Both the position numbers and the translations under genes were made by a program. 64,000 nt of DNA, taken from Escallonia rubra (taxonomy: Eukaryota; Streptophyta; Magnoliopsida; Escalloniales; Escalloniaceae). The notes below the pieces were generated by a model. The model was given only the letters and a program-made list of their open reading frames with translations, did not search any database and was not told the DNA's origin. The stretch spans positions 62,001 through 126,000 of the forward strand of contig JAVXUO010001025.1 in assembly GCA_033065855.1 (NCBI GenBank). The letters are read 5' to 3'. Below, in pieces: positions 35,689 through 57,135 of the stretch (its first letter is position 1; each line of letters begins with the position of its first letter).

Positions 35689-37638
35689 GGGAAAATTAGG
35701 TTTTGATGGGTTTTGGGATTAAAACTTAGTGAAGGGTGAGTTTCTTTTGAAAAGTTATGAAAAAGTGGAGTGACTTTTCAAATTTTTTGGACAAGGGGTA
35801 GAATTAGAAAAAAAAAATTTAATTTTTGAAATAAATTAATTTGGTCTTCCCAAGTTATCCCTCCCCCCAAAATCGTTGACCTCAGTTCTGTACAAGTCAT
35901 TTTCTGCAAGAATGCAAGTACGGTTATGCGAAGATGATTGTCAGTCGTTTCATCTCTTCCAACTGATGCAATACTAAACTTGCCTCCAATTGGATACCAC
36001 CAGAAAAGTTTAAATTCTTGGCAATAAACAAGGTTAAATTCTGGGTAATTTCGGGCAAGTTGTTGTCATCGAAATTTGGATCATGCACTCTAGATTACTT
36101 GCCATGAATGTTTGTGAGTTCAGACAGATAAGTAGGAAAAGCTTCCTTTCTCCGGATAGAAAAACCTCTCATTCAGTGTTCCCTAGTATGTTATATAGTG
36201 GTCAACCACGAATAAGTGAAACAAAAGAAGTATTGACTTAAGAAAAGCAACAAAGAAGTCTCAAATAATTAGATTCTATGCATTCTCGTGCTTCAGTCAT
36301 ATTCATATGTCATCAGAATCTATGTTGATTACTGGAGGTATTAATTGTCTTTGAGGGTTATATATATGTGTTGAAGATACTTATATGGCTCACTCGTGGT
36401 TATAAGCATAACTAATGCTTTGACTGAACATATCCAAAACTCAATGGTAAATTCTTTTCTTTACTATGATTCATGAGGAATATAACGATGATGACGATGG
36501 ATGTTAATGACTTGCAGAATCCTCTAACAAGCTAGTGCAGGCACTAGAGTCATGAAATTCCAAAAATCACAAGGGTAAAACAAGTATTAAATTTAGTGAA
36601 CCATAATGATAGAAGTGATTTTTTGAACAAAAAAGCACATATCTACTGCACACATCCTTTGCACTATCAATGGTTTCTGCCTCTTTTATGGAAGACAGTC
36701 AAATTTATTGAATGGCAACGGTAAAGGTAAGGTCCTTAATGACCATTCTCCACCTTCATGTATTGATACAAGGGAGAAATTATTGCTAACTGAGCACTAT
36801 TTTAACCTTTTTTTCATTTGAAATTGGGTCTTTGTGTAAAATTAGGTTACAATTAACTCATAATATTAGCACCTTAAAGAAAAATTAATATACCTAGAAG
36901 ACCTTCAGAATTTAAGTCGATAGAGGACATTGTAAAATTTAATCATATGTATCAAGAAATGAATGACAAGAACTTGGAACATGGGCTTTTCTATTTGTAC
37001 CAATAATAAGAAGGGTCTTTTGTCTAAATTCGCTCCATCAGTGAAACAAGAGTTGCAAGAACCTTAATGGAGATTGTATAAATGGGTTTCCCATCACTAA
37101 AGTCACACATTCGGAATCAGCCTATACAGATATTACCACCCAATGGCTGTTAAATTCTTTAAATCTTGAAAATTAGACCTTTAAAGATTGCATAAAAGAC
37201 TTGCAATCTAAACAAGCTGATGCAGTCAACAACTAATTATACCCGATATATCTAGAGGAATCTTTTGACTACAAATAAGAATAAACATCCAGAGTGAGCA
37301 TTAGTAAAATGGATTCTTTTAATCATTCAAAGAGAAAATTGCATCAGTTGGAAGAAAAGAAACGTCTTGAAAATCTGTACAAACTGACAAGTATCTTCCA
37401 ATAACCTACATGCATTCTTAAAGAAAATAACTTGTATCACAACAGTGGTCAAAGATTTTGGGAGGAGGGGTAATTTGGAAAGACCAAATTAATTGATTTA
37501 AAAAAACCCATTTTTTTCAAAGTCGGGGGCCCTTCTTAAAAAATTTTGAAAAGTTACCCCACTTTTTCACAAGTTTTCAAAAGAAACCCACCCTTCACTA
37601 AGTTTTAATCCCAAAACCCCTCAAAACCTAATTTTCCC
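35689..37638. mobile_element. Non-autonomous MULE-like TIR element A
   Basis: Ends are inverted copies starting GGGAAAATTAGGTTTTGA and continuing for about 185 bp (35689-35875 against 37450-37638). A 9-bp near-perfect target duplication flanks it: TTTTGAAAT (35680-35688) and TTTTGAAAG (37639-37647). Long TIRs and a 9-bp duplication are the marks of Mutator-like elements. The 1.6-kb interior is AT-rich without a transposase; I recognise no captured gene. Confidence 0.8.
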
Positions 37639-37724
37639 TTTTGAAAGTGGTTGAATTGTTGCCCTTCACACTTGAAATTGGAGGTTCTGTGAAGCTCCAA
37701 TTTTGAAATCTTGCCTTTTTTTTT

Positions 37725-40700
37725 GGGAAAATTAGGAAAAAGTGGGTTTTTGGGTAAATTTTTTGGGGATGATGGGTTTGTTTTGAAAACTTGTGAAAAA
37801 GTGGGGCAACTTTTAAAAACTTCTGAAAAAGGGGATGACTTGTGAAAAAATGGTTTTTCTTCTAATGATGACTTTTCATTTCCCATGCTATCCCTCCCCC
37901 TGTTTTGTCCCTTTCTTGATGGGAAGATGCGTTGGTGAAAATGTCACCAAGAGAAAACAAAAGGCATGAAGAAGAAGAAGAAGAAGATGGGTAAAGGTTA
38001 ACAAGTCTGTGCAGTGGGAGTGGTACACTGTGCTTGCACAGTTGTACCACGTAGCTATGGGGCATCGTGCAAATCTCATAAAATTCTGAAACTTTACAGG
38101 AATATTTTTAGGACAATTATAGAATTACTGTTAAAATTTCAGATTTTTCTGATATCGTTTAATGTTTTCAATATGTTTTGAAAGTTCAGTTACTCTAAAA
38201 TTAATTTGGAGCTCTTAAAATTCTTAATAAATTCTGGAAAATTTACTTTAATGATTTTATGATGTAAATAAGTTTCTGTTTAAGTTTCGTAACTTTTAGA
38301 GTTGATTTGATACTAATTCCATATCGCATTTGATTTAGAAAAATGGATGATTTTAAAATGGTTTCGTTACTTTTTAAATCCTAATTTCTGTTTCACTATT
38401 TTTCTTATATATTTTGAAGCTATCATGAAAATTATGGGACTCTGATTTGGGCTAGAAGCATTAATTGCTCTTTTTGGGTTTTTTTTTATGGTATTTAAGA
38501 AAATCGTTTTTAATTTGAAAATATTCAAAAATTCAGAAAATTTATATTGTAACTTGTTATGCTGTTTTAAGGTACAAAACCATTTATAAGAATTTATTAT
38601 CATTCTAGAGTGTCTTAATGCGTTACAGAGTGTGCAAGGTTATCGGTTAGCTAGGTTTAGCTGCTCGAGCAATCCGGTTCGTTTTCGTTTACTTTAAGAG
38701 TGTCAGAGTGAGCAATGATTAAGATTAAGCATTATATTAATAGTTTGCGAGCAATCCAGATCATTTTCTCCTCGGCACCAACGTGTATATTTGGGTCGAA
38801 AAAATGCGGCCTAATTGAGAGGTGACAAAACGCGGCGCTTTTCATCACAAAATGGCTAAACCGCATCCGTTTCTTCAATCCCAACCCCCTTAGCGAGGTC
38901 CTCTTTTTTTAGGAGTCCCACCGAAGCAAAAGCAACGCTTGTGCCCCCCGTAATTTTTACATAAAAAGACTGGGGCATTGGCAGAATCCGACATGCACTT
39001 TTGCATAAAATGACTTCAGTTTCTGCAGAAAGTGACTTGTGTTTCTGCAGAAAGTGACTAGTTTCACCCAGACCGTGCTTCTACACCGTTCTTCTATGAT
39101 TGATCGATAAACACACTCTGAAGCGGATCATTTTCTCCTCAGCACCTACATGTATATTTGGGCCGAAAAAATGCGGCCTAATTGAGAGGTGACAAAACGC
39201 GGTGCTTTTCATTACAAAATAAGTTCATATATGATAAAAATTCTAACTTCTAAACATGGTTCATTTTGCTAACTGAAGTTCTAATGCTTAATTAATATGA
39301 GGTCAATTGATGGAAAAATGACATTCATCAAAATACGCATATTGATTGGCACAAGAGTCCGAGATCATAGTATTTTTTGTCCTATATTAACCCATGCACC
39401 CTCACTCTCGATGCCCAATTTTTAAGTGGCACATGTATGCTGATTCTCATCGATACATGACATTAATGACGTGATGAAAAGTCTCTAAGCCTATTGATAG
39501 TACAATGATTAAATCGATGCACAACGAGAAATAAACACTGAGCATCGAATAGGATTTTCAATAAACGTGTAAGGCTCAAAACAGGGTTTTCAAGGCAAAC
39601 AATGCGACTTTATGAAAATAACAGAATCCAAAAGAATAGCGATAACAAATCAAGAGAATGTACGAAATCAAATATGAAGAGTTTGGTTCGGATAAAAATC
39701 CCTTAATACGATCCAGGTTATGCGCTCGCTGTTATTCAACTTTGTTCAAACCTCGAATTAACCTAAATGGAAAAATTAATTATTATAATTCAGTCTAACC
39801 TCACAAACTATTAATATAATGCTTAATCTTAATCATTGCTCACTCTGACACTCTTCAAGTAAACGAAAACGAATCGGATTGCTCGAGCAGCTAAACTTAA
39901 CTAACCGATAACCTTGCACACTCTGTAACGCATTAAGACACTCTAGAATGATAATAAATTCTTATAAAATGGTTTTGTACCTTAAAACAGCATAACAAGT
40001 TACAATATAAATTTTCTGAATTTTTGAATATTTTCAAATTAAAAACGATTTTCTTAAATACCATAAAAAAAAACCCAAAAAGAGCAATTAATGCTTCTAG
40101 CCCAAATCAGAGTCCCATAATTTTCATGATAGCTTCAAAATATATAAGAAAAATAGTGAAACAGAAATTAGGATTTAAAAAGTAACGAAACCATTTTAAA
40201 ATCATCCATTTTTCTAAATCAAATGCGATATGGAATTAGTATCAAATCAACTCTAAAAATTACGAAACTTAAACAGAAACTTATTTACATCATAAAATCA
40301 TTAAATTAAAGTTTCCAGAATTTATTAAGAATTTTAAGAGCTCCAAATTAATTTTAGAGTAACTGAACTTTCAAAAAATATTGAAAACATTAAACGATAT
40401 CAGAAAAATCTGAAATTTTAACAGTAATTCTATAATTGTCCTAAAAATATTCTTGTAAAGTTTCAGAATTTTATGAGATTTGCACGATGCCCCATAGCTA
40501 CGTGGTACAACTGTGCAAGCACAGTGTACCACTCCCACTGCACAGACTTGTTAACCTTTACCCATCTTCTTCTTCTTCTTCTTCATGCCTTTTGTTTTCT
40601 CTTGGTGACATTTTCACCAACGCATCTTCCCATCAAGAAAGGGACAAAACAGGGGGAGGGATAGTATGGGAAATGAAAAGTCATCATTAGAAGAAAAACC

Positions 40701-40827
40701 ATTTTTTCACAAGTCATCCCCTTTTTCAGAAGTTTTTAAAAGTTGCCCCACTTTTTCACAAGTTTTCAAAACAAACCCACCATCCCCAAAAATTTTACCC
40801 AAAAACCCACTTTTTCCTAATTTTCCC
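37725..40827. mobile_element. Foldback TIR element B with about 1.02-kb arms
   Basis: Left arm 37725-38747 and right arm 39804-40827 are near-identical reverse complements, so the same 67- and 63-codon open frames appear on both strands. The tips read GGGAAAATTAGGAAAAAGTG, the same family as element A. The central spacer is 38748-39803. The tandem (AAG)n at about 37968-37985 is mirrored at 40563-40583. The interior has no coding sequence. A target duplication is not clear (left flank is a T-run, right flank AATTTCTTT). High arm identity implies a recent origin or ongoing gene conversion. Confidence 0.8.
38763..39220. repeat. Two 93-bp direct repeats in the foldback spacer
   Basis: CATTTTCTCCTCGGCACC to CATCACAAAAT (38763-38855) and CATTTTCTCCTCAGCACC to CATTACAAAAT (39129-39220) are about 90 percent alike by eye, both with AAAAAATGCGGCCTAATTG and GGTGACAAAACGCGG. 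Between them lie three AAAGTGACT-type words. Confidence 0.8.
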
Positions 40828-41811
40828 AATTTCTTTCCTTTGCCTGCTTCTGCACAACGAAAGTCTGGGTTTCTATGCTTTGTTTGTTTCCAAGATCAAA
40901 TGGGCTGAATTTGTTGTATTAGGCTCAGCTAAGTGGAGTTTTTCTTTGCTGTTGGGCCAATTTTGAGTTCAAAAGTTGCGGTTCCTCTCTCATTCTCCCT
41001 GGGCTTTTGGAGTCACCAAACAGAGCTATAGTGCTATATGTTCTGTACTCTATACCCTTCTCGAATTTCTGAACAATTTTGTCTGTAATATTTCTGCCTT
41101 ATGGTTTTTTAATCCGTGCCTGTGAGTGTGGTCGTGGGTTTGTTTTTCGTGGTTGTGGGTGTGTCTGGTGGTCGCGGGTTTCGCCGATTGTCATGGGTTG
41201 CGGTGATGGGGTTAGATGTGGCGACGGCGGCGGGTTGACAGGCAGTGTGTTGGCTGATGACGACCGGTCGGCGTTGGTGGTTTGCGAACGGTCGCGGGAG
41301 GTTGTTGGATGATGGGCTTTGGGATTTGTGGCGGTTGGTGGTCGTGGGTGGTCTTGGATGGGCCGATTTAGATGTTGAAATCGGCCGGCGGTGGTGGGTG
41401 GTTGGGGGGACAGTGTGGTGGACTTGGTGCTCGTTGGTGGGTCTGTTGGGTTCGCCGGAGGTTGTTATCGGCACTGTCTCCGGATGGTGCTGTCGCCGGT
41501 GTTGCCAGATGGCGTCGCTGAAGGGTGTTGCCGGCGATGGTGGATGCTGATGTGTGAAATGAGAGCAGCCCTGCAGTCTGTTTGTTCCTGCGTTAGTGAT
41601 TGTACAATGTGAATTTTTTTTGTACACCATGCATTGTTGGTCGTACAACACGATTGTAATATTATTTGAATTTTTAAATAATATTATACTTTGGATATTT
41701 AGAATAATTTTACTTTTTTTTACTTAAAAGTACTTTTAGGTCTCCATACAATGAATGAGTCGCACATACATTGCGTGTGCACGACGGCTTGAAATTCATA
41801 TAAGAAAACCC
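40828..41811. other. Unassigned block with G-rich core
   Basis: No supported gene. The 41120-41550 part is G/T-rich on the plus strand (GGTGGTCGCGGG, GGTTGTTGGATG). Its open frames encode Trp/Gly/Val- or, on the minus strand, His/Pro/Thr-rich strings, which indicates composition rather than coding. It resembles the GC-rich core of the MITE at 16 kb. Confidence 0.4.
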
Positions 41812-41889
41812 ACTTTTTTATTAACTTTACAAAAGTTTTCCGGCATCCCCTAAATTGTTAACCCAAAAACTCACTTTTTCCTAGTTTTC
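41812..41889. repeat. Third terminal repeat of the GGGAAAATTAGG family
   Basis: Ending CTTTTTCCTAGTTTTCCC at 41889, this stretch matches the tips of elements A and B over about 55 bp. Its left partner is not resolved. It abuts the end of the minus-strand C-JID gene, cutting it relative to the plus-strand copy. Confidence 0.6.
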
Positions 41890-43260
41890 CCTTCCATTTT
41901 TATTTTTTAGCTTCCTTGTTATGGGGGGATCATTATCTATATTCACATTATCTAGTTCTCTTCGAATCCCAATGGATCTCGCCGGCTCCCCCTTTGAGTT
42001 TTCTGTTGCCGCCTTGTCGCAGGAGTCTGATTCTGAGGCAGGGTCCTTGTGAGATTCCGGACTACTTCTTTTGCTGGTGGATTCCCAATCAAAATCTGGA
42101 GCACTGAATCTCTCTCCCCGAGGAGTCAGCTTGTTGATCTGTTGCTTTTGTTGGACGCGCAAGGCTCCGGCGAAGGGGTCCATCCTCCGAATATAATCTA
42201 ATGGCGCGGTAGCGACTCCGGGAGCAAGTGCCGTGGAAGTTGTGGGTGTGAGGTCATTTTCCTTCTTCTCTTTTTCCCATTGCAGTTGCAGGTATTCCAG
42301 TGAAAATTCCAGCGGTGGCAGGTCAAAGAACTGCCCAGGTAAGGTGTTAGGGCATTGGGGCGGTGCAGGTGGGGTGGCAAGGTATTGTGTGTAGGTGGTG
42401 GTTATGGACTGTGCCGGCTCCTTCCCTGGCCTGTGTTGTATTGTAGGATGATCGCGGGGATGGGCTGGTGGCTTGAATTCTGTAGTGGCGGTGGTGTCTG
42501 AGTTGATGGGGTGGACTCTAGGAGGGCAGGGAGGGAGAATAGAGGGTACAGGAATGCCTTCAATAATCGGAGAGTTGTGGTTGGATGGGCGACATACTAT
42601 CATTTGGCCTTCGAGTGGTAGCGTGACATCTTCCTTGTAAATCAGACGACCACCGCCCTTTTGAACGATCCACCCCTCAGAATTAGCAAGGAAACGAACG
42701 TCGGATAGAAGGAACTCGATGAGGCGACAGTTGTTGGGTTGAATTCTTGCAGCAAGTGTTGTAGGCGAGAATACATGACCAAATCTCAGGTATGCCAGCA
42801 ACAAGTGCATCGGACCAACCTTTACTGTTGAGCTAATCTCAATTCCCCTCCTAATCATAAAGCATTCCTCAAGGTTGTCATCACTTTCCACTCTTACTTT
42901 CATGCGAATGAAATGGGTTCTTCTCCTATCTAACGGATGACGTGTGAAGTCCCCTGCTAATTGGACGACAGCGTATATCGCAAAACCCAAGAAGTTGGCA
43001 CTACACCATTGTGGAGGCAGCTCCATTGAAATTGACCGCCCCATGTTCTCATTGCCCAACTGCCCTGGGATGTCTCTTCCAGCATACATAATACTTGAAC
43101 TTGTGTAACCTCTGTGTCTAAAAGTGCTACCACAATGGTATAATGATAACTTCTTGGGATTTGCTATTTGCGCTGTCGTCAAATTACGGGACTTCACTTG
43201 TAGTCCTTCTAGTCGGACTACAACCAACTGTATTCGCCTGGAAGTAAAATTGGTAAACAA
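41881..43260 (-). CDS. C-JID (TNL C-terminal domain) protein fragment with Pro-rich tail
   Basis: 459 open codons. Residues about 1-48 are merely antisense to the neighbouring plus-strand copy; genuine homology starts near 43118 (RHRGYTSSSIMYAGRDIPGQ). Residues about 57-220 match the C-JID domain that follows the LRRs of TIR-NBS-LRR immune receptors: GRSISMELPPQWCSANFLGF, AIYAVVQL, LLLAYLRFGHVF, NCRLIEF and GGGRLIYKEDVTL. In receptors this jelly-roll domain helps recognise the effector. A Pro/Thr-rich tail of about 240 residues follows (LATPPAPPQCPN), which TNLs do not normally have. No TIR, NB-ARC or LRR is in the window. The end is formed by a TIR-element tip. Long openness argues for recent coding selection; alternatively it is an exon of a larger gene. 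Confidence 0.6.
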   Translation of the reverse strand: MFTNFTSRRIQLVVVRLEGLQVKSRNLTTAQIANPKKLSLYHCGSTFRHRGYTSSSIMYAGRDIPGQLGNENMGRSISMELPPQWCSANFLGFAIYAVVQLAGDFTRHPLDRRRTHFIRMKVRVESDDNLEECFMIRRGIEISSTVKVGPMHLLLAYLRFGHVFSPTTLAARIQPNNCRLIEFLLSDVRFLANSEGWIVQKGGGRLIYKEDVTLPLEGQMIVCRPSNHNSPIIEGIPVPSILPPCPPRVHPINSDTTATTEFKPPAHPRDHPTIQHRPGKEPAQSITTTYTQYLATPPAPPQCPNTLPGQFFDLPPLEFSLEYLQLQWEKEKKENDLTPTTSTALAPGVATAPLDYIRRMDPFAGALRVQQKQQINKLTPRGERFSAPDFDWESTSKRSSPESHKDPASESDSCDKAATENSKGEPARSIGIRRELDNVNIDNDPPITRKLKNKNGREN

Positions 43261-44260
43261 TCACGACCGGGTGCACTTCCATCATCTTGTCGCGTGCATT
43301 AAGGTTGGCTATAATGAAAAGGTTCAACTGAATCACGTGTTGCTGGCATACCTAAAATTTCGTGATGTATGTTGGCCTAGCCTTGACGGATTCCAACCCA
43401 ACAACTGTCGCCTAATCAAGTTCTATATGCACGACGGAAGTGACTCTGCTCGTACTCTCCCGTTGATCGTTTCGAAAGGGGGCGTTCGTCTGATATACAA
43501 GGAGGATGTTATACCTGAGGAGGAAAATGCTGAATCAAGCCCTCAACAATTGATGGACGTTCCGGCTCCGATTCATGAAGATGTTCCTGAACCGCCTACT
43601 CTCCTTCCCTGCCCTCCTAGAGTCCAGCCCATCGACTCAGACACCACCGCCACCACCTATCCCGGCGATCATCCTGCAAGACACCACAGGCCAGGGAAGG
43701 AGCCGGTACAGTCCATAACCACCACCGACACACAACACCGTGCCATCCCACCTGCACCGCCTCAAATCCATAGCACCTTATCTGGACAGTTCTCTGACCC
43801 GCCACTGCCGGACTTTTTACCGGAATGCCTGCAAGGGGAAAAAAAGAAGATGGAAAATGACATCACACCCACAATTTCCACGGCCCCTGCGGCCTTAAAT
43901 CATCTCCCGGAAATGGACCCCTCCGCCGTAGCCTTTGGCTTTCAAGAAAGGCAGCAGATCAACAATCTGACTCCTGGGGGAAGCATGCTCGATACTCCAG
44001 ATATGGATTTTGACCATAGTGATCGTCCGGACTACTGTGACGAGGCGGCTGTAGAAAACTCAAGGGGAGAGCCGGCGAGACCCATTAGGGAAAGAGCACT
44101 AGATATGGATGATGACCCCCCTGTGACAAATATGCAAAAAGTGGAAGCTACAGCCCAACCATCGGCATCAGCAGGTATCCCTTTATCTCGTCTCTTCTTA
44201 AATGCGCCAATTCCCCTTCACTGCTGCTTATATTTCCCAATCCTTTTACTACTGTCCTGA
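43119..44260 (+). CDS. C-JID protein fragment, inverted second copy
   Basis: About 380 open codons beginning inside the C-JID domain (LPQWYNDNFLGFAICAVVKL) with no ATG at the edge; the first in-frame start-like codon is GTG, so it lacks its true N-terminus. It continues through LLAYLKFRDVCW, NCRLIKFYM and KGGVRLIYKEDV, then a Pro-rich tail (HRAIPPAPPQ) and acidic end (DMDDDPPVTN). Identity to the minus-strand copy is around 60 percent by eye with several indels, all in frame. AG|GTATCC near 44175 could be a splice donor. It is directly followed by an L1 LINE. It may be a host gene exon, or part of a LINE ORF1-like chimera. Confidence 0.55.
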
Positions 44261-44469
44261 TTTCTGCACTCGAAAACGGGAAAATCATTGAGCTAGAATG
44301 CTAGATGTTGATTGCCATGACTCACTTGTGCTACAAAAACCAACTTAAAACGTCGAGATCCCGTAATTTTCCCTTTTCAAATGATTATCAAGGAAGCAAA
44401 ATCTCACTACCAATCTCGTGCCTCTTTTCTCTGTTATCAAACGGAAGAAAGGCGCGGCTTCAGGTAATT
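44261..44469 (+). other. Linker between C-JID copy and LINE, right arm
   Basis: Carries SRSRNFPFSNDYQGSKISLP, the counterpart of the left-arm linker at 31020-31214. Position and spacing suggest the inter-ORF region of a LINE or a 3' UTR. Confidence 0.4.
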
Positions 44470-47400
44470 GGAAACTGGGTTTTACCTAGTCAGTGGGTGT
44501 GGAACCCTCGTGAATTTTGGGAACTAAAGGAGGTATTTGGGTGGGTTGGACAGAAAAAGTTGGTGGTTAGTAGTTGTAATAAGTAATAACACATTATTAC
44601 CCTGGCTGATTGGTTTTGGTTGGGGACTCCAATCAGTCTTTACCACAAACTCGCAAAACAGGGGTAAATTATACAAGCACGCAAAGGAGGGTAAGATATT
44701 CTGACTTCCTACAGACCAACAGCTTAGTAGCATTAAAATGGTTGTCCTGCTTTTACAGATAACACGTGTACCTATGAACGTATGGACTGAGGCTTCTGCA
44801 ATGCCAACTAGGCTCGAGATTTTCCCTTTGCCCAAATTCTTAATCTTGGGATACTGACTAACTTCTGATCATGCACCTTTAATCCTCGGCCTCAATTCAA
44901 TCCCATAAATGAGTTTTTGCCCAGACTCAAAAGATTTGAGGCAATGTGGCTAAAAGCATCCACGGGCCAAACTAATTATTTGGAAATCTGGATGCCCAAA
45001 TATCCTCATGGGAACGATTTGGAAATCTAGATGCCCAAATAATAGATGCCAATGCCCACCTTCTGCATTTTTATGTGCTCATACCAAACTTTGGACGCAC
45101 AAATCATGTTGGAGCAGAATGCCAGGAAAAAACTTGACTGGCTTCTAAATTGTGAAGAAACCTTTAAGGCTCATAAAGCCAGTTACACCTTAGTGACATA
45201 AATACAAAAGTTTTCCAGACATCAACTATCATTCGCAGAAACAATAACTCGATTCGATTAATCACTGGTGGCTGGGCAACACCTATTTATCCACTCCGAT
45301 ATCTCCTCGTCACACTACACATTTTGAAACTAATTTCTTCCCACCCCCCACCGTATTAAGAACTAACCCTTGATGTCCCATTGTAAGTGACATATCTCGC
45401 ACTCTTTCGCATGATCAAATTTGTAACTTGAACAAACCTTTTTCAGCTGTAGGAATAAGATCTGCACTATTCCAGATCAAACCCTCTCAAAGCACCAGGC
45501 CTGGATGATATCCTAGCTTTAGTTTACCAAGAGCGCTGGGATATTATGGCTCAGCCGATCACAATAGTAATCCATGTAATCTCTGAGATCAGCTTATTTG
45601 CTCGGCATCACAAATAAAACTCATCTACTAATCTCAAAACTTAAGCCCTCTACCAGACTGAAAGACTTTAGACCCAATAGCATTTGCAATACCATGTAAC
45701 ATGTCATAGCAAAGAGCCAAAGACCCTCATAAAATAATTAAGGAAGCCTTGCCAAATATTATCTCGGAAGAAATATTTCAATGACATCATTGTTGGTACC
45801 ATTAAAATAGACATGAGCAAGGCCTATAACCGAGTACGATGGAACTTATCAGAAGCTATTCTGGAAAAAAATTGTATTTGATAGCCACTTCATCCACCTT
45901 ATAATGTCATGTGTCAGTACATTTTCTTGTGAGATTCTCTTAACTGGATCCCTATCCAAATGATGTTTCAACCCAATGCAGACTCAGACAAGGAGACCCT
46001 CTATCCCATATCTGTTCATCCTGGGTGATTAAGCTCTTTTGGCTGCTTTAGTGCAAGCCCAGTTTGACCAGAGAGTACTCGACATCAAAGCAGGTCGAAA
46101 CTCACCAGCAACTACCTGCCTTTTCTTCGTGGATGATTCCCTGATTTTCACTAAACTCAAAGCTTGACCCGTTCTAATCTGAAGAATATCATGGCAAGAT
46201 ACTGTGAAGAATCAAGGTAAACAACTAACCTTGACAAATCTTTGCTCAGAACTAGCCCAAAAACTCCTCATTCAATGGCACGTGAGATGGCCAATGTTCT
46301 GTTAATGACAAAGTCCTTAAGCACTGCTCGTCCTGGAAGGGACTGCTTCTCAACATAGCCGGACGAGCTATCCTTGTCAAGTCCGATCTATCCATCGTCT
46401 TCATCTAAAACATGTAGGTCTGTCTTGTACCACAATAGTTCTGTCACCGCATTGATGCGATCCTGAGCCAATTCTGGTGGTCTTGTGTTAGATACACCTG
46501 AGGCATCCACGAGATAAACTGGCATGCACTTTGCACACCATTAGATCTAGGGGGGTCTAGGCTTCAAAAATTACACGTCTACGGAACAAAGTCCTTCTAG
46601 CTAAACTCTCCTGGCGAATTTTTTCAGAACCTACATCGCTATTGAAAAAATTCATGATCGGGGAATATTGCCAAAACAAAAGTATTCTAAAATCGCCAGC
46701 CTTTCGGGGCTGGCGCAGTATTTCTGATTAGCCATGAGGTTTTATCAAAGGACTTTGGTGGCAAGTAATGGATATATCATTATTGTATATAAGGATGAGT
46801 GGATCCAACACAGAGTTCACTTCATGCCTTCTCAAAACCAGCCTAGAGAGACCAAAGATCAAAAGTCAAGAACCTCATAATTAATGATAATTGGAGTACC
46901 CTTCTATTGGATAAGCTATACCAGTCAGATATAGAGAGAAAGATCCAAGCAATTTATAATCTAATTATGATTATGAAGACCATGAGGACGGGAGTGCCAC
47001 TCTAAACGGGGATTTTACTGTCTTTTTGGCCTATCAACTCCTATATAAGGAGCAAAATTGGTCTTTAAATCAAAGTAACGAGAGACAGAGAAGCAATGTA
47101 ATGGGATCACCAAGGCATAGACTCACCTTTGGAAATTCCATCTACCCCTAAAGATATTCATCCTTGTATGCCAAATTTTCAAGGACAGATTACCTTTCAC
47201 AGCAAAACTCCGAAGACTATATATCACACGTGATGAGCTTTGCTCTATGTGTAGTGCACAGTCAGAAACTATAGACCACTTATTCCTCTAATACCTGTTG
47301 TCAAACCTATCTAGATTGGAATACCCTCTGCTATTAGAATTGATCAAGTCAGGGTTCCTTAAAAACTTGGCTTATTGCTTGGGCCAACATCCGAACACGA

Positions 47401-47545
47401 CCTCACTTTCTCCCTACCCTCAACTTATTCTTTACCATATGGTGCATTTGGACTAACCATAACAAGCTAGTTTTTAGACAAAAACCATTTAACCCTACCC
47501 AGATCATAAAACATATATTACATCCATGTAATAATTTTTGACAGC
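44470..47545 (+). mobile_element. L1-type LINE, EN to zinc knuckle, decayed
   Basis: Near the 5' edge WNPREFWELKEVFGWVG corresponds to the WNCRGLGN-type start of the plant L1 endonuclease. Further blocks are LTSDHAPLIL near 44855, RFEAMWLKAS near 44935, a QGDPLS block near 45990, FFVDDSLIFT near 46125 (RT active site as VDD) and CSMCSAQSETIDHLF near 47255 (zf-RVT). FTIWCIWTNHNKLVF near 47440 follows and the 3' end is T/A-rich near 47545. There are many stops and frameshifts. The first 1.3 kb is repeated in inverted orientation at 29495-30770. No RNase H is seen. Confidence 0.75.
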
Positions 47546-47599
47546 CCTTTTTTTTATTCAAGTTTTTTTTGTTTCTATACTAGGGGTTTGCTAGATGTA

Positions 47600-48160
47600 C
47601 TTGCTGAACACCAACTAACCAGTGACACTAAGCACTGTGTTAGGCATCTTACAATAATCTGCAAGTCAAGATAAGGGTAAAGCCTTGAAAGATGCCTTGT
47701 GGACTGCTGCAAGAGCTACAATAGTGAATGTTCTAAAAGGTGCATGGAAGAGTTTAAGAATATAGATGGTGAATCATTTAACTAGTTAGCTGATTAGTGC
47801 CCAGCATCTAGGTCCCATTTCAATCCTCAACCTACATGTGATATGTTAATGAACAACTTATGTGAGAGTTTTAATAAGTACATTCTCAAATCAAGAGTTA
47901 CACCAGTACTAGCTCTATTTGACATCATTAGACAACAGCTGATGAGGAGAATGCATAGTGAGAGGGTGTGGATGGAAAAATATAACGGTGTGTTTGTGTC
48001 CTAACATAAACGAAAAGCTTGGAAAGATAAAGGAAGCTGCTTCACACTGGATTGTATAAATCTCTCGGGCAATAAAGTTTGAAGTGGTTGGCATGATGGG
48101 GGAAAATTCACTGGGGACGTAGATGAATATTATTGTTCCTATAGGAACCGAACATTATGG
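47600..48160 (+). pseudogene. MULE transposase fragment (catalytic C-terminal part to SWIM)
   Basis: Reads RHCVRHLHNNLQVK near 47615, then FKNIDGESFN, SRSHFNPQPTCDMLMNNLCE (47810-47870), SFNKYILKSRVTPVLALFDI, IRQQLMRRMHSERVWMEKY, a GMMGEN stretch and EYYCSYR (start of the SWIM zinc finger). This is the standard order of the plant MuDR-type transposase after its DDE core. Several stops and shifts are present; the N-terminal half and the rest of SWIM are missing. It may derive from the same MULE family as the tail at 28.3 kb. Confidence 0.75.
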
Positions 48161-48211
48161 TGGACCGAACATTATGGTGGACCGCCACCGAGAAAGACCA
48201 AAGGTCTTCTC

Positions 48212-50895
48212 GAGTGGCTATCTTATCTTTTAAGTTAAATAAATAACTAAAGAAGGAAAATAAGAAACCTAAAGTTCGACTCTGGATTGTTTAATTAAAG
48301 CTTTTAATCTCACAAAAATAGAGATTTGGATTCGGGGACTAAGTCATATGACGGGAAGCTAGTAGGCACCCCGTCATGCCCTAATGGTCTCTAACTTGTC
48401 TTACGGTAGTTTTATTATTTTATCCCAAAACAAATGACAAAAGAACAAAACCTAAAGTAAACCTACTTTGGTTTAAAGTCGACAATGGGGGTCGAATGAC
48501 CTATGTACCCGACTTGATAAGTAGGGATTAAAAAAAGGTAGTTTGATCGAACATATTGGGAGGTGACCTAAATCCCGGTCTATATTTTTAGAGACCTAAT
48601 TCAATTCAACTTCTTCTAGTTAACTGCTTTAAAAACTCTTTTTGACCGACTCTAGTAGTTGCTTTAGGATTCTAATCGAGATAGAAGTCCAATCGTTATA
48701 GAATTCTAATTTTAGCAGAATTCTATTTCTATAAAAATTCTAATCCTAACCAACTTCTTCTAGTGGTAGGCTTGGAGATTGTTCTTCTGATTTTTACCAC
48801 AGACCGAAACTTGATTGCGGGGAAGGGGTTAAATCTAATCTAATCTATAACTATTCTAAACTACTCCACTAAAAGATAAGCATAGGAATTTGTAGAGTAA
48901 AATGCACCAATGGCCACCGAACTATAACCCATTTTTCACTTAAGTCACCCAACTTTTTTTTGTGTCATTTTAGTCATTGGACTCTCAAATATGTCCAATT
49001 TGATCAACCATTCCATCAGCCGGCGTTAGGAAGAGTCCCGTTAAGTAGTCATGTGCAAGGTACATGACCCTTAACCCAGGGGCAAAATCGTCTCACCAAC
49101 CTAACTCTTTATTTCTTTTCTTTTTCTTTCTTTTTGACTTGATTTAACTTAGTTGTAGTATCCTTTTGTCACTAAAAGTATTAAAGTTATCTTTAAATCT
49201 TTTAGCGACAAAAAATTATTTTGGTTCTATTCTTTTTTCTTTAACCTGGCACCATCTGGAGGTCAATCTCTGTGCAACACCACCACCCGCCACCACAGTG
49301 CAACACCCAAGCCTTCCCATCAAAATGGTAGGGCTGGAACTGATGTGTACATCAACACATGAATACAATTTCCCTATGAACAAAAGCAATTAAAAAAATG
49401 AAAAAAGATAAGCCAAACTGAAGAGTGGTAAGCACTAGCAGCATTCAATATTTTCTCTTCATAATAACTATTAAGAAACAGTTTTCAATGGTCTTGTAGC
49501 CATCTCCTTGGCCCTCCTCCTCAAAATGGCTTTTGCACTTTAGTCAGCGTCTTTCCTCACGTAGGATTATTTCGGATAGCAGACCTACCAAAGGGAACCG
49601 AGACATCATGTTTGCGAGAGGAGTAGAGATCAATATGATGTTTGCTAACCTAAGGAAGTTGTCTGACCCAGAGAAAGAGTTGGAGGAGAAAGACTTCTTT
49701 TGCATAGGCGAAACTGGAGCATAAGGCATGTGGCTGGCCTCAATCTAGTTTATAGTCAATCTCGGAGCAGCTGACTTGTTTAAGCTTCCTTAAACCATTT
49801 CATAATCAAGCAGCCACCACCATCACCCAATCAAAACCACCCAAGCCCTGCCGTAACCACCATCCGATCCGCCCCCACAGTACAACATCCCCAGCCAGCG
49901 ACGCGGGCGACGACCACCTTGGAGCTGTGCCGTGACCGCAGCGACGACAACAAGATCTTGGAGCTCTGTCAAACACACGACGACGATTCATCCCCCAAGC
50001 CCGCAACGACGACCGCCACCATGCCTGCGCAGACCTCCAAGACTCTCAGATCTGTTTGTTTTGAAAATGAAGAAGAGGGAAGACCAAATCTGTTGTGATG
50101 AAAATGAAAAAGGAAGATCAGATCTGTTGTGAAGAGGGAGAGAGAGATATATATTGAAATGAAGTGACAGTTTTGCCCCTCTTGTGATGCCCCATGTGCG
50201 CATCATGTGACTACTTAACGGAGAAAATTTAACTTTGGCTGACGGAATAGTCAAATTGGATATATTTCAGAGTCCAGTGGCTAAAAAGGAACAAAAAAAA
50301 ATTTGGGTGACTTAAGTGAAAAAGGGGTCATAGTTCAGTGGCCATTGGTGCAATTTACTCGAATTTGTAATTCTTGATTTGGTTAGCTTGGAAGACTTGT
50401 CAGTTTCCTCCCCATTCTCCACAATGCGGTGACTATGCACTGAACTTGAATTTGGCTAAGAATCTGAACCTCTTGGTTTATTCTCTCAAAATTTCTTGCC
50501 AGTTTAAGCTCTCGCACAATATCCACAGCCTTTATGAGGGGAATTTTCTCGTCAACTGACTACCCCTTTTGAGGTAGCCAGAAAGCCTTCTTAAAAAAGG
50601 TCCGAGGTAGCAAAAATGCAGGAGGAGACTATTAGGCCGCGCCTATCACCTTTACGAGATAAGACTAAAATTAGGTTAAAAGTCTAAATCGACCTTACTG
50701 GCCAGTTCATTTAAGTCCACCAAATTACCAATTGGTTCCTTTGGAAACCGGCCGGTTCAATTCTCCTCTCTCAGTTAATGTATTTTTAAATCAGCTCTAG
50801 ACAGAAAAGACCTCATATCTTGATAAAACTATATGTGATTAATCTAAAGGTGTCCTTGATAACCCAATTCAGCAATTAAAATAGAAATTTTCAAT
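48212..50895 (-). repeat. Gypsy (Tat-like) LTR fragment, split by a MULE
   Basis: Minus-strand counterpart of the plus-strand LTR pieces at 28.6-29.0 and 32.1-32.9 kb. Matches lie at 48340-48540 and 50600-50890, with the MULE 48895-50360 inserted between. The edge near 48212 (GATAGCCACTCGAGAAGACC on minus) parallels the primer-binding edge at 32930. A 19-bp unit ACCGAACATTATGGTGG is duplicated at 48151-48186. Confidence 0.5.
48895..50360. mobile_element. Non-autonomous MULE with 9-bp target duplication
   Basis: Tips GAGTAAAATGCACC and GAGTAAATTGCACC are in inverted orientation, with TIRs of about 165 bp (to about 49060 and from about 50195), including ACTTAAGTCACCCAA on the left and its complement on the right. 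Flanked by the perfect 9-bp duplication GAATTTGTA (48886-48894; 50361-50369). The interior lacks a transposase. Two non-repetitive pieces may be captured host sequence: an open frame at 49533-49724 (ARGVEINMMFANLRKLSDPE) and a GC-rich block 49800-50060. Confidence 0.92.
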
Positions 50896-51044
50896 GGCTT
50901 CTAATTAAGTGCATTTGATAACGTAGTTTTTCTTTGTCACTTACAATAATAAATGCTAGGTTAATTAAAGGTGAACATTTTAAGTCAACAATAACTGACT
51001 TATCACCAAACAAGCTTAATGGTAGGTCATTAAAACATTTTACC

Positions 51045-51769
51045 TATGAAGCACCGGTGCGGCAGTCAGGAAGAAGCATCGGCACCAGGTGCGCGTCGGG
51101 TGCGACATGGGTGCTCACTGGATGCATGTCCGAAAGTTTTTTTTTCAATTAATTTTCTGGATCTAGGGCGGCTCGGACATGCACCCAAGGTTTTTTTTGT
51201 AGAGAGTAGAAGAAGAAAGAGAAGGAGAATAGAAGAAGGAGAGAAAGAAAGGGAAGAAGGAGAAGAGAAAAAGGAGAAGAGAAGAAGGAGAAGATAAGAA
51301 ATAACTCCGTTGGAGCGTCAAGGGTCTTCCAGCAGGAGAGGCGATCGGCGAGGGACTTCCGGCATTAGAGGCCACGGCCACTCCTTGCTGTGATGTTTTC
51401 TATGTCTCTAACGACTGACGGCTTTGTTATAAGATAGGGATAGCGTTTCTATGAAACTTCATTTTTATTATGTTTAACTCCCAGGTCTATTGACAATCTT
51501 GCAAAAATCCACTACTTTTAAAAAAACAATACAACTTCTATGAACTTTGTCATACTTGATTATGCACTTTCAATATTTCTAAAGCAGCCCACCAAATTAA
51601 CAAAATATCTTATTGTTTGTCTAAAATAACATTATTTTTGTTATATACAAATAATATATATAATAAATTTTTTTTGTATCTCCACCGCACCTGTATCCTA
51701 TTTTTTTAGAAAATGACGTATCGGTATATCCACACCCATATCGCACCTGCACCGAAATATGTGCTTCTT
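51045..51769. mobile_element. Small MULE-like TIR element, 11-bp target duplication
   Basis: Left tip TATGAAGCACCGGTGCGG and right-tip complement AAGAAGCACATATTTCGGTG are inverted relatives rich in GGTGCG words. Flanks carry AACATTTTACC at 51034-51044 and 51770-51780. The interior has a purine-rich block (51198-51300) and no coding sequence. Superfamily is inferred from duplication length. Confidence 0.75.
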
Positions 51770-51780
51770 AACATTTTACC

Positions 51781-52469
51781 AATAAAGGACTAATTTGCCC
51801 TAACTGTCTCCTCTTCTTCCCAATTGTCTTCACCTCTTCTTCTTATTCGCTGCCACTTCTTCTTGTTCCTCTGGCTGACTCGCTGCCTCTTCTTCTCTTC
51901 TCACAGTACTCCTACTTGCAAGTGCATGATTTCATGGTGCTTTATTACATGGGTGTCCCTTGATCTATGAACTCAAATAGGACTTTTTTTCCATTTGTTC
52001 TTTGTGATATTTGATCCCTCTCCTAAATTATGAATCATCTGAATTAGTTGGGGATGGATTTCCCTTTCAATATACACTGCATAGTGTGTTTATGTATTGC
52101 TTTAAGAAGTTTTCTTAAGGTCCTGTCTATCAAGGTATAGATTAGGAGATTATCCGAGACGACGACCAACAATTATTCTGATTGAGATTACTAGGAATGT
52201 GCTAAATGAAGCAAATTATGTGCCAAGTTGTAAAACAAAATTTGGATCTTTATCAAGCTACTTCTTCGGATTGGTGCCTGAGTATGTGATATTGAACCCT
52301 TTATGAGTTATATTTTGGTCCTGGTGTAATAATTATAATTACTACACATTTGGGACAGTACAAGGCCTTTCAAGGGGCGAGTTTGTTTTCAGGGGAAATT
52401 GATGCATGTACCATATGTTTAAGTGCATGACCATAACAAAAAAGGTCAGATTGCAGAAGTATGAATCTG
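51781..52469. other. Unassigned stretch
   Basis: CTTCTTC-rich at 51805-51900, otherwise AT-rich. No gene or repeat pair recognised. Confidence 0.4.
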
Positions 52470-52980
52470 TCACACCCACACTAATTTACAGATGAAGCAC
52501 TCAAAGAACAAAGGATTTGGAGGAAACTTTATTTCTTGCTTACCATTAAATAACACCGTGCATACAAACATATAAAGAAAGAGCAGTAACTGACTCCTTC
52601 TAAGATACTTCTTCTTCTCTTCTGGCTTCTTGGCCTCTTCTTTCTTGGGCTTTTCCTCCTCCTTTTCAGGATCTTGTGCTGGCCCCACACTCACTAACTC
52701 TAAGTGACATAGTTTCCTTAATTTTCCCATTATTCTTACGGGATCTATGTCCTGACACTGTTAATTTCTTGTCCTTTGGATCCATCGCAATTGATTCAAC
52801 CGCTGCAAATTTCACACACAACCCCCTTTTAGATTTGAAAAAATCTTCATAGTCCTAAGAGGTTTGGACATAAACAAAGCTAAGAGAAATTATTGGTAGA
52901 ATACCTGAGAGGTTAGAGACTTTCTGCATGGCTTTTTGCTTGGATTTTTCATGATGGAATTCCAATTTCAACACTACTTT
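52470..52980 (-). pseudogene. HIPP-like heavy-metal-associated (HMA) gene, broken
   Basis: Exon 52980-52905 reads KVVLKLEFHHEKSKQKAMQK then VSNLS, the first half of an HMA fold of the HIPP type. A GT-AG intron (52904-52803) follows. The next exon, 52802 down, reads AVESIAMDPKDKKLTVSG, then after a 2-base shortfall near 52755 the original frame resumes as DPVRIMGKLRKLCHLELVSV, GPAQDPEKEEEKPKKEE. Standard HIPP proteins carry a metal-binding MxCxxC and end in a CaaX prenylation box. The Cys pair is absent here (as in many HIPP members) and no CaaX end is seen; the tail drifts into unrelated residues to the stop at 52470. An upstream first exon with ATG is expected near 53.0-53.1 kb but is not certain. 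Confidence 0.7.
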
Positions 52981-53082
52981 CTGCAACTTTTTGCCATTAA
53001 CAAAGATGAGAGAGCACCAAAGGATCTGAATCAGACTCTTAATCATAAAAACCTTAATGCCAAAGAGGGCAATCAGATTCAT

Positions 53083-53829
53083 GCTCAGGCTAGCTAGTCA
53101 TATGACACATGACTTACTATAACTCATCAAATCTTATCTTACTGATCAGACCCAATGAAGTATATTACACCAAAATTCTTAAATCCACCTTTGACAAGTC
53201 ATCTAAGGTATTTGACCATGTGATATGCGTACTTGTATTTGATTGCCATCATCATAAAAATTGCTTAAGCTTGTGATGGTCACAAATTTCATGTGTACGA
53301 CAGTAACCCAACTAAAAGACAAAACCAAGGCACCTGAATTATACAAGGAATCTAAATCAAACCAAAGTGATCAAAGATCCCAAAACGGTATTGATATCAC
53401 TTCATACAAAATTAGCTCTCCTCTCTCTCTCTCTCTCTCTCTCTCCCCCCGCTGCATTCTAGTTATATTTCAAACTTGCTAATTTTACGAGTTAAACATG
53501 TCATGTTTTTTGGAGTAGAGATCATAAGATTAAACTTAGCAAAAACTTCTGATTTTTCTCAGTTTTTGTCTTGATGGAAATGTCTGGGCTATTCCCATAA
53601 GTATGCCAGTATAGAGATATTGGCATTCAGAAGTTAAGTACCTTGTTGGATATGTGTTCAAGCTGCTCTTAGGCCTGAGAGAAGTTTTTTGACCACCATG
53701 GTCACAGTTCGAAAATGCTGCCTACAGAGTGATTCCGTCGAAATTTTTGTGCAAAACTTTTAAACCTCTTTACCGACACTTTTCCTGTTTTGTATTACAA
53801 AATCTTAGACCTTTAACCTTTTATAGTAG
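53083..53829. other. Unassigned stretch with (CT)n at 53415-53445
   Basis: No supported gene. A CT microsatellite of about 15 units ends in CCCCCC. The remainder is AT-rich and could include the HIPP promoter. Confidence 0.4.
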
Positions 53830-53844
53830 TATCTAATACATGTT

Positions 53845-54156
53845 GACGATGACTCTGACGTGTCTCTTACACTTGATTTCCCGATGGATGTACCAAAATC
53901 AAAAGTCAAACGCCATAAGAAAGACAAATCTGAGAAGCTTGATGACCAACAAGACGGGTCATGCATGGAGGAGTGTAATCGTATCTTAAATGAGATGCAA
54001 ACGATACAAGTGACTCATCACTTATACGTTGTTGCATGCAGCATTTTTTGTGAAAGTAAAGTATACAGGGAACAGTGGATGTTGCTCAGTCAAAAACCAG
54101 AAGAAGTTAGAAAAACTTGGATACAAATGAATGGAAAAAGGCTAGGACTTATGTGA
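53845..54156 (+). pseudogene. Myb/SANT-like Harbinger-associated protein, C-terminal part
   Basis: Reads VDDDSDVSLTLDFPMDVPKS, a basic stretch KVKRHKKDKSEKL, then EECNRILNEMQTIQ and YREQWMLLSQKPEEVRKTWI. The acidic/basic linker followed by a short helical domain with RE-x-WM and EEVRKTWI is the C-terminus of the Myb-like protein that accompanies plant PIF/Harbinger transposases and recruits them to the element ends. The N-terminal trihelix is not visible, and there is no ATG at the edge. The transposase remnant lies 0.9 kb downstream on the same strand. Confidence 0.5.
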
Positions 54157-54999
54157 AGTGTCCTTGGTTCGTATAATGTTTTGATTACGGATGCAATTCT
54201 TAAATGATTGTTGGACTAGTAGGAAGTTAATGAACTATCTTTTCTTTTTCATTTTGTTTCCTTTTGGAGTGTTGGATAATGTACTTTCTGATGTGTAAGT
54301 GTAATAATCATGTTTATCTTTTATTGTGCTAATTATTGACTTTACATTACTGTTCATTTATATTGTCCTCAAATGCATAGAATATAATGGTGAACACAAA
54401 TAAAAAAGATGCCCTAAAGAGTTGTTACAACCATTCTCATAATGAAAATATTTAAACAAAGACATTTTAAGAGAGACCAAAAACAAATATTTCGCTTAGT
54501 AGAGCTGGAAATTTAGACGAGCTAATGAATTGAAATCCTGCTCATTCTCAAGAGATTTTAAAGATGCACAAACAAACATTTTTTAAAATTGTAACCACTT
54601 TTGCACTCGAGGGCTACTAAAGGATAGTCGTTATGTTTCCATATGCGAGAATATGGCAATGTTCTTGGTAATTTTGAGCCATAATGCACAAGGACTCGAT
54701 TTGTTAAACGAAGATTTAACCATTCAACGCGTATCGTGCATAGATATTTTCCCAAGGTGTTATCGGCAATGCTAAAATTTTCTAAGGAAATGATTGTTCC
54801 TACCACATATAATCCTAATGCCAATCAGATTCGGTACCATCGTCGGTTTAGACACGTGTTTCAGATATAAATATAAAGTTAGATCTCGTTAAAGTTTTCA
54901 GTGACATATATTTTTTAAGTGAACAAGAAAACGCTTATAGGCGTAATTTTATATTCACTTGTATCCTATGTGGTGGTATTTTTTTAAAATTTTTTGGCC
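54157..54999. other. Spacer between Harbinger remnants
   Basis: AT-rich. An 88-codon minus-strand open frame at 54558-54824 shows no recognised domain. The 5' half of the transposase would be expected here but is not recognisable. Confidence 0.35.
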
Positions 55000-55700
55000 G
55001 TAGAGTGCAGTGGGTGCACTAGACATAAGCCTTATTCATTTTTGTCATATCCCTTGATCAGCAAAATATAAAGGAAGATGAAGGGGTGAACGTTACTAAA
55101 TGTTTCTAGCCATATGTGACTTTAATATGATTTTCACATGACTCAAAGGGTGTTAATAGAAACTATGCGGGATCCTGCTAATCTTTTTCTATTCCGCCCC
55201 CCCAGTATTGAAATATGGTGCCTCAATATATATGGTATGGACATTCAGTTTAAACCAATACTAAATTGTTGAAATAAATGAATTTATTACAGATAAGTAC
55301 TATTTATGTGATGCTGCATTTACATATACTAGTAGAATTAGGGCACCTTTTTGTAATGTGCGTTATTGGTTGGCGGACTTTGCACATGGTCATCGTGCAA
55401 GAACAAAAGAAGAACGATTTAACCATGTACATGCTAGATTGGAAATGTCATAGAGCGTTCCTTTGGAGTCCTTAAAGGCTTGATTCCCAATATTGAAGAG
55501 GATGCCACCATATCATTTTCAAGTACAAAGGAATATTGTAATTACTTTTGCAAATGTTACATAATTTCCTTCAGAAAATGATTGTCACAGATTGCCTTTT
55601 TAAGCGATTTGACAATGGGGATATTCTTGAAATTATGGATCACCACGACCAAAATACAATAGATATGGGAGCAGAAGAACAACAAGCTAATCAATTTTTT
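55000..55700 (+). pseudogene. PIF/Harbinger transposase, C-terminal half, decayed
   Basis: Pieces in different frames match the DDE transposase in order: AVGALDIS near 55005, FLAICDFNMIFT near 55100, DSRVL-like near 55140, DKYYLCDAAFTYTSRIRAPF near 55290, NVRYWLADF near 55355, EERFNHVHARLEM near 55410, LKA-FPILKRMPPY near 55475 and FQVQRNIVITFA near 55520. The last acidic catalytic region (VDA-like CDAA) is partly changed. At least three frameshifts are present. Terminal inverted repeats and the 3-bp target duplication were not found. Confidence 0.75.
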
Positions 55701-55781
55701 TTATGTTGAACTTATGGGAATAGATTGCATTTTAGAAAATTATTAAATTTTGTCAGAAATTCTAATATAGCCTGAGGTACC

Positions 55782-57076: not shown

Positions 57077-57078
57077 AG

Positions 57079-57090
57079 TGGTATCAGAGC
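57079..57090 (+). promoter_or_regulatory. copia primer-binding site
   Basis: TGGTATCAGAGC, the complement of the initiator tRNA-Met 3' end, two bases after the LTR. Confidence 0.92.
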
Positions 57091-57135
57091 CTCGACTCTT
57101 GATATATTGGGTAACACCAAGAGAGTTAATCGATC

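What the first reader, a model, noticed from the sequence alone, without database searches (positions are those of the whole stretch)
41881..44260. Two diverged C-JID plus Pro-rich genes head to head, both still open
The minus-strand (from about 43118) and plus-strand (from about 43119) copies meet inside the C-JID domain and each stays open for about 380-410 homologous codons although only around 60 percent alike at protein level by eye, with in-frame indels. Neutral decay at that divergence would normally add stops. C-JID is known only as the post-LRR module of TIR-NBS-LRR receptors. Here it stands without LRRs and with a long Pro/Thr-rich tail that TNLs do not have. It may be a stand-alone C-JID protein family, or the last exon of a receptor with an unusual tail.
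Basis: partly seen in the sequence, partly recalled or inferred. Interest (0 to 1): 0.72.

Follow-up and report, generated by a model that had tools for sequence, protein, structure and literature searches.

The report
Two broken-off immune-receptor last exons
The two head-to-head reading frames are most likely the cut-off last exons of two ordinary plant TIR-NBS-LRR immune receptors, joined by a DNA rearrangement, and not a new stand-alone protein family.

Summary
The sequence observation is largely right. Both frames are open and hit Pfam C-JID above its cut-off. They are 45% identical, and the join is at 43130/43131, not 43118.

The stand-alone reading fails. In the window's own 566-Mb assembly the same C-JID plus Pro/Thr tail is the last long exon of TNL genes: C659 reads TIR, NB-ARC/ROQ1-type winged helix, LRR, a ~4.5-kb intron, then C-JID plus tail, with phase-0 splice signals.

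The minus copy is 94-95% identical to the 3' ends of two genes that keep NB-LRR exons upstream (C2358, C1776). The plus copy ends a block of at least 16 kb, 94.8% identical but inverted, matching the 3' end of another TNL on the same contig. The blocks meet at a 2-3-bp overlap not found elsewhere in the assembly. The join removed the minus copy's splice acceptor and C-JID positions 1-24 of the plus copy. No TIR, NB or LRR exon was found in the window or its 10-kb flanks. Pairwise dN/dS is 1.17.

Most of their divergence was inherited from two parents, so open frames need no selection. Most likely: orphan exons without protein function.

The parts
41881..43131 (-). Orphan last exon (C-JID plus Pro/Thr tail) of a TNL of the C2358/C1776 type; splice acceptor and about 9 exon bases missing
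   Evidence: 94-95% DNA identity to C2358:6558-8579 and C1776:1467-3486; acceptor compared
42625..43083 (-). C-JID domain of the minus copy, profile 2-97 of 98
   Evidence: Pfam PF20160 39.3 bits; place
41884..42624 (-). Pro/Thr-rich tail of the minus copy (247 codons)
   Evidence: composition
43130..44260 (+). Orphan, 5'-truncated last exon of a TNL of the C2931:17-27 kb type
   Evidence: 93% to C2931:17034-18188
43130..43510 (+). Partial C-JID of the plus copy, profile 25-97 of 98
   Evidence: Pfam PF20160 37.5 bits; place
43511..44257 (+). Pro-rich tail of the plus copy (249 codons; its last part may be intron or 3' UTR in the parents)
   Evidence: composition; alignment
43130..43131 (.). 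Junction of the two blocks, 2-bp overlap with C1776 (3 bp with C2358)
   Evidence: only the window holds both sides among 17 matches
35719..43131 (-). Left block: 3' end and downstream DNA of the minus-copy parent, interrupted by an insert
   Evidence: collinear with C2358:4123-8579, 92-94%
43130..59256 (+). Right block: inverted duplicate of C2931:2001-18188
   Evidence: 94.8% over 16,329 columns, cut by the end of the fetched stretch
41905..42036 (-). Conserved C-terminal tail motif, minus copy
44030..44149 (+). Conserved C-terminal tail motif, plus copy
42251..42427 (-). Stretch of the tail exon also found inside Pack-MULE-like elements elsewhere

Best explanation
The two frames are the 3'-terminal exons (post-LRR C-JID domain plus Pro/Thr-rich tail) of two different members of one clustered TIR-NBS-LRR (TNL) subfamily. 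Duplication and rearrangement inside the receptor cluster copied the 3' ends of two receptor genes with their downstream DNA and fused them head to head at a 2-3-bp overlap. The break falls about 9 bases inside the minus copy's exon and inside the C-JID of the plus copy. Both are therefore cut off from their TIR, NB-ARC and LRR exons; the minus copy has lost its splice acceptor and the plus copy the start of its domain. In known TNLs this C-terminal module helps the LRRs bind a pathogen effector (literature). The orphan copies most likely have no protein function and are decaying; they remain open because they are young and because most of the divergence between them arose in their parents. 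Shown here: family, exon context, junction anatomy, no upstream exons found, relatedness. Inferred: end joining as the mechanism, lack of function, and effector recognition as the role of the parent exon.
For: C-JID hits. C659 is a full TNL with the same last exon: TIR E 2.5e-56, NB-ARC 1.3e-28, WHD_ROQ1 5.5e-22, LRR_13 3.8e-31, C-JID 1.8e-14. The LRR exon ends GAG|GTTCTC in four of the five genes read and AAG|GTTATC in C2931; the C-JID exon starts CAG|AGA in all five, phase 0. Of 40 merged loci matching the minus protein, 3 are in the window and 13 are short tail pieces of the kind carried by transposons. Of the other 24 (9 of them tail-only matches), 13 have a same-strand TIR exon within 30 kb upstream, 2 more have NB/LRR exons, 2 have a TIR at 34-36 kb and 7 have none listed. 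Block collinearity and junction. No TIR/NB/LRR exon in the window plus 10 kb each side. Minus-plus dN/dS 1.17, bootstrap 0.86-1.69. Sister exons carry disablements: C1776 a 4-bp insertion followed by a TAA; C2931:17-18 kb two 2-bp deletions and a TAA.
Against: Both window frames are open while two sister exons are broken, mildly unexpected for dead copies. In a crude simulation the chance of staying open was 0.55 for minus (18 substitutions) and 0.25-0.49 for plus (50-25 substitutions) without indels, but 0.15 and 0.01-0.09 with an assumed 0.1 indel per substitution. No transcript data. In the minus-C1776 pair the C-JID alone gives dN/dS 0.37, though on 7 changes with interval 0.05-1.52. Not every relative is an intact receptor: the NB match of C2358:7-14 kb splits between two frames, no TIR was found within the fetched 20 kb of C1776, and the C2931 gene has its LRR match split between frames. 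An assembly misjoin at 43130 cannot be excluded.
Confidence: 0.9

Rival explanations
1. Assembly chimera: the two exons belong to separate places and were wrongly joined at 43130 when an NLR cluster was assembled.
For: The junction is found only once in the assembly and joins two members of a multi-copy family, where misjoins are common.
Against: Each side runs on for kilobases with its own divergence from its relatives (left 92-94%, right 94.8%), so neither side is a mere copy of another assembled place. Even if true, both parts remain TNL last exons.
Confidence: 0.1
2. A stand-alone C-JID protein is made from the minus copy, starting at the ATG of codon 58 (402 codons, whole domain), acting as a decoy or regulator.
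For: An open frame with an ATG before the whole C-JID exists; minus-C1776 dN/dS in the C-JID 0.37.
Against: Upstream of the exon lies only antisense of the plus copy, so no native promoter is expected; dN/dS intervals include 1; the sister exons belong to NB-LRR genes; the plus copy has no such start.
Confidence: 0.03
3. Inverted-repeat silencing locus: a read-through transcript folds into a hairpin and gives small RNAs against the parent TNLs.
For: Region 42087-44009 folds at -1083 kcal/mol against -585 to -604 in 5 arm-shuffled controls, with 633 of 720 pairs between the arms. Inverted duplications of coding genes gave rise to 16 Arabidopsis MIRNA loci (PMC1790633, abstract and passages).
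Against: The arms are only 71% identical, with longest perfect run 22 nt; any inverted repeat folds well; no promoter or small-RNA evidence.
Confidence: 0.05
4. One copy is still spliced as the last exon of a TNL farther away.
For: Plant introns can be long; a fragment like the TNL long intron lies at 70.2-70.8 kb in the flank.
Against: No TIR/NB/LRR match in the window plus 10-kb flanks; the only TIR listed on this contig is at 26.4-26.8 kb, before another C-JID exon; native acceptors are gone.
Confidence: 0.02

Closest known systems
C-JID / post-LRR domain (Pfam PF20160) of TNL receptors such as RPP1 and ROQ1
   Same: Above-cut-off profile match in both copies; follows the LRR exon in the parental genes.
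   Different: Window copies have no LRR, NB or TIR exons. No sequence match to any PDB chain at E up to 1 for the minus frame. Some of the four signature motifs are degenerate.
TNL genes C659:4.3-14.4 kb, C2358:149-160 kb and C2931:17-27 kb (same genome)
   Same: Same last exon, tail and C-terminal motif. The C2931 gene is the plus side's closest relative found (94.8% over 16 kb).
   Different: They carry TIR, NB-ARC and LRR exons upstream. C2358:149-160 kb has an insertion in its C-JID exon; C2931 has frame breaks.
C2358:7-14 kb and C1776:2-9 kb NB-LRR genes (same genome)
   Same: 94-95% identical DNA to the minus copy and its downstream sequence.
   Different: They retain the splice acceptor, intron and NB-LRR exons.
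Head-to-head paired TNLs (RRS1/RPS4 type; PMC8813719, passages)
   Same: Opposed orientation of two TNL-derived sequences.
   Different: Those are complete genes; here two last exons are fused inside the coding sequence, with no 5' ends.

Membership tests
C-JID domain (PF20160) | Profile match over the curated cut-off | tested here: met
   39.3 and 37.5 bits, cut-off 24.1; the plus copy is partial, profile 25-97
C-JID domain (PF20160) | Four signature motifs as given in PMC8813719: P-x-[YEW]-F; Cys plus hydrophobics; His; Cys-Gly | tested here: inconclusive
   By eye: His kept in both; Cys of motif 2 in plus (FAICAV) but Tyr in minus (FAIYAV); motif 1 degenerate in minus (PGQL) and absent in plus; motif 4 has Gly without Cys (KGG) in both
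C-JID domain (PF20160) | Beta-sandwich (jelly-roll/Ig) fold | tested here: inconclusive
   AlphaFold2 with only the two window sequences: mean pLDDT 35.3, pTM 0.22; strands predicted in 47-163, tail mostly unstructured with two helices; too poor for a fold search
TNL receptor | TIR, NB-ARC and LRR exons upstream of the C-JID exon | tested here: not met
   None in the window plus 10 kb on each side; one 26-aa NB match at E 0.14 in the flank is not credible. Met for C659, with TIR, NB and LRR matches also at C2358 (two genes), C2931, C2930 and C317:124-131 kb
TNL receptor | In-phase splice acceptor joining the C-JID exon to the LRR exon | tested here: not met
   CAG|AGA present in C659, C2358 (two genes), C1776 and C2931:18 kb; removed by the junction in both window copies
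Stand-alone C-JID protein family | Conserved gene copies without LRRs, under selection | tested here: not met
   Same exon sits in NB-LRR genes; dN/dS intervals of the window copies include 1 except the minus-plus tail (1.61, 1.05-3.38) and comparisons with C659. Seven loci without a listed TIR were not examined for NB/LRR. Other plant genomes could not be searched
Functional gene (any) | Transcription | not testable with these tools
   No RNA data

The most novel reading that the evidence does not exclude
The head-to-head exons form a young inverted-duplication locus whose transcript folds into a ~1.9-kb hairpin and feeds small RNAs against the TNL clade it came from: a newborn self-silencing switch on an immune-receptor cluster. 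The Pack-MULE-like elements with the same tail piece could be a second, dispersed source.
Probability: 0.05. Interest if true: 0.5.

Novelty: new member of a known kind. Interest (0 to 1): 0.18.

Why it matters
It warns against reading an open C-JID frame as a new stand-alone protein: an orphan last exon of an NLR can stay open for hundreds of codons because its divergence was accumulated in a working parent. Annotation pipelines could call a false gene here. It also gives a base-level picture of how an NLR cluster is torn and rejoined. The Pro/Thr tail with its conserved C-terminal motif is a real feature of this TNL group that may deserve study in the intact genes.

Tried and rejected
Stand-alone family: rejected on exon context. 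Transposon carrying the whole minus copy into the plus copy: considered because both C1776 and C2358 lose similarity to the window at 43131-43136. Rejected because C1776 and C2358 stay alike (97%, with one gap of a few hundred bases) for about 7.5 kb past that point, so the break belongs to the window, and because the plus copy's missing upstream part was not found further left in the window. Tail of transposon origin: considered because 13 loci match tail pieces only. Rejected because in the 10 compared the piece is a ~177-bp internal stretch of the exon (454 bp in C1881) beside one arm of a terminal-inverted-repeat element, so capture from the TNL is the simpler direction; only some of the 10 were fetched with both arms in full. 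Damage in the NB exons of C2358 and C1776: suspected from the errors, then checked; the stops lie at codon 19 and (C1776) codon 404 of stretches that include intron ends, so they do not show damage, but the C2358 NB match does split between frames. Structure prediction gave an unusable model, so no fold search was run. PDB sequence search of the minus frame found nothing at E up to 1. The literature searches 'C-JID + proline-rich' and 'post-LRR + TNL + proline-rich' each gave 0 papers in the held open-access library, which does not show that such tails are unpublished. 'C-terminal jelly-roll + TNL + pseudogene' gave one listing, not read. Other plant genomes and RNA data were not available.

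Full report
Where it lies. The window is bases 62001-126000 of contig C2931 (191,873 bp) in an unnamed 566-Mb assembly. The many TIR and NB-ARC exons fit a eudicot plant (inference); the species was not identified.

Observation. The minus frame (41881-43260) and plus frame (43109-44260) are open, and both match Pfam C-JID over the curated cut-off. They share 45% identity at protein level over 381 columns and 70.7% at DNA level over 943 columns. The homology of the minus copy to genes elsewhere ends at 43131 (C1776) or 43136 (C2358), and that of the plus copy begins at 43130. Codons 1-43 of the minus frame are antisense of the plus copy. The plus copy matches only profile positions 25-97, and its first ATG is codon 107 of the frame, at 43427.

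What the family is. A genome search with the minus protein gave 59 matches. I dropped one antisense echo and merged the rest into 40 loci. Three are in the window: minus, plus, and a decayed fragment near 31.5 kb. Thirteen are short tail-only pieces of the class carried by transposons. Of the other 24 (9 of them tail-only matches), 13 have a TIR exon on the same strand within 30 kb upstream; two more have NB/LRR exons but no TIR found (C1776 and C317:81 kb); two have a TIR at 34-36 kb; seven have none in the list. The TIR search scored 150 of 227 candidates, so misses are possible, and those seven were not examined for NB or LRR exons. The locus C659 shows the whole plan: TIR exon within 4303-4830, NB-ARC plus ROQ1-type winged-helix exon within 5592-6812, LRR exons to 8864, a ~4.5-kb intron, and the C-JID plus tail exon from about 13348 to at most 14397. 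The LRR exon ends GAG|GTTCTC in four of five genes read (AAG|GTTATC in C2931) and the C-JID exon begins CAG|AGA in all five, phase 0. The C-JID plus Pro-rich tail is therefore the last long exon of a TNL subfamily. No cDNA was available to confirm the splicing.

How the window copies arose. The left side (35719-37724, 40854-41093 and 41090-43136) is collinear with C2358:4123-8579 (92-94%), and 36693-37724, 40854-41093 and 41090-43131 with C1776:1-3486 (88-95%). These are 3' ends and downstream DNA of genes that still have NB-LRR exons beginning 2.7-2.9 kb upstream of the C-JID exon on the same strand. The right side (43130-59256) is collinear, inverted, with C2931:18188-2001 at 94.8% over 16,329 columns, the 3' end and downstream DNA of the TNL at C2931:17-27 kb on the same contig. 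The two sides overlap by two bases with C1776 and three with C2358 (sequences), and among 17 matches to the 201-bp junction only the window holds both sides. C1776 and C2358 continue to match each other for about 7.5 kb beyond the break, so the break is the window's own. It removed the acceptor CATACAG and about 9 bases of exon from the minus copy, and what lies before C-JID profile position 25 from the plus copy. No TIR, NB or LRR exon was found in the window or 10 kb on each side. Inference: end joining after duplication within the cluster; an assembly misjoin cannot be excluded without reads.

Why both are open. They did not diverge from each other in place. Minus and C2358 differ by 35 counted changes over 399 codons (dS 0.036, dN 0.028); plus is 93% identical to C2931:17034-18188. 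Minus against plus gives dN/dS 1.17 (0.86-1.69), with 0.83 in the C-JID and 1.61 (1.05-3.38) in the tail (Nei-Gojobori, in-frame ungapped codons only, stop codons left out). By contrast, comparisons with C659 show constraint in the C-JID: minus 0.42 (0.27-0.71), C2358 0.42 (0.26-0.65), C2931 0.55 (0.37-0.81), plus 0.66 (0.42-1.00). A crude simulation puts the chance of staying open at 0.55 for minus (18 substitutions) and 0.25-0.49 for plus (50-25 substitutions) without indels, and 0.15 and 0.01-0.09 with an assumed 0.1 indel per substitution. So the open frames are compatible with recent decay but do not prove it. Two sister exons, C1776 and C2931:17-18 kb, are already broken.

The tail. It is variable and Pro/Thr/Ser-rich (Pro 13-16% in minus, plus and C659), with length changes and a better-conserved end, [SES]DxCDEAAVENSKGEPAR...DDDPPATKKQK, seen in whole or part in C659, C2358, C1776, C2931, C317 and C2930. 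The basic KKQK end could be a nuclear signal (inference). [quoted passage not shown] A survey of 305 angiosperm genomes found C-JID exclusively with the TNL class among NLRs, with 5.8% of C-JID-containing TNLs lacking an LRR (PMC12787737, passages). Nothing here calls for a new kind.

Function. In RPP1 and ROQ1 the C-JID binds the effector together with the LRRs (PMC8813719, passages). The parents of these exons probably do the same (inference). Without LRR, NB and TIR the window copies cannot act that way. The boldest reading left open is RNA-level: the head-to-head exons can fold into a long hairpin, -1083 kcal/mol against about -595 in 5 shuffled controls, and such inverted duplications can seed small-RNA loci (PMC1790633, abstract and passages). 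I give it 5%.

Verdict.

Noticed in passing
L027:3003-4373 (C1082), L029:763-1917 (C1547), L026 (C1881:155944-157444) and others; equivalent to window 42251-42427: Pack-MULE-like elements: 1.1-1.5 kb, ~187-bp terminal inverted repeats, apparent 9-bp target duplications (C1547 AAAGAACAA, C1881 TAAATAAAA), carrying a ~177-bp piece of the TNL tail exon (454 bp in C1881). 10 elements compared, 13 loci listed.
   Followed up: partly
window 37723-40829: 3.1-kb insertion with 1030-bp inverted arms 98.6% identical, absent from the collinear C2358 and C1776 sequence. Sequence like its end (41809-41891) supplies the stop codon of the minus frame.
   Followed up: partly
window 29552-31917: A third, decayed copy of the same TNL 3' region (71-79% to C2931:15507-17718), minus orientation.
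   Followed up: no
window 43130-59256: Inverted duplicate, at least 16 kb and 94.8% identical, of C2931:2001-18188 on the same contig.
   Followed up: partly
L037:993-1340 (C2930:220.5-220.8 kb): The conserved C-terminal tail motif is tandemly duplicated.
   Followed up: no
L015 (C2358:150289-150534): An insertion of about 250 bp interrupts the C-JID exon of a TNL with TIR, NB and LRR exons; a related sequence (72%) lies at window 19524-19762.
   Followed up: no
flank L012, window-scale 70246-70818: A fragment 78% like the long intron of the C2931 TNL (20501-21062), with no TIR, NB or LRR exon match found near it in the fetched flank.
   Followed up: no
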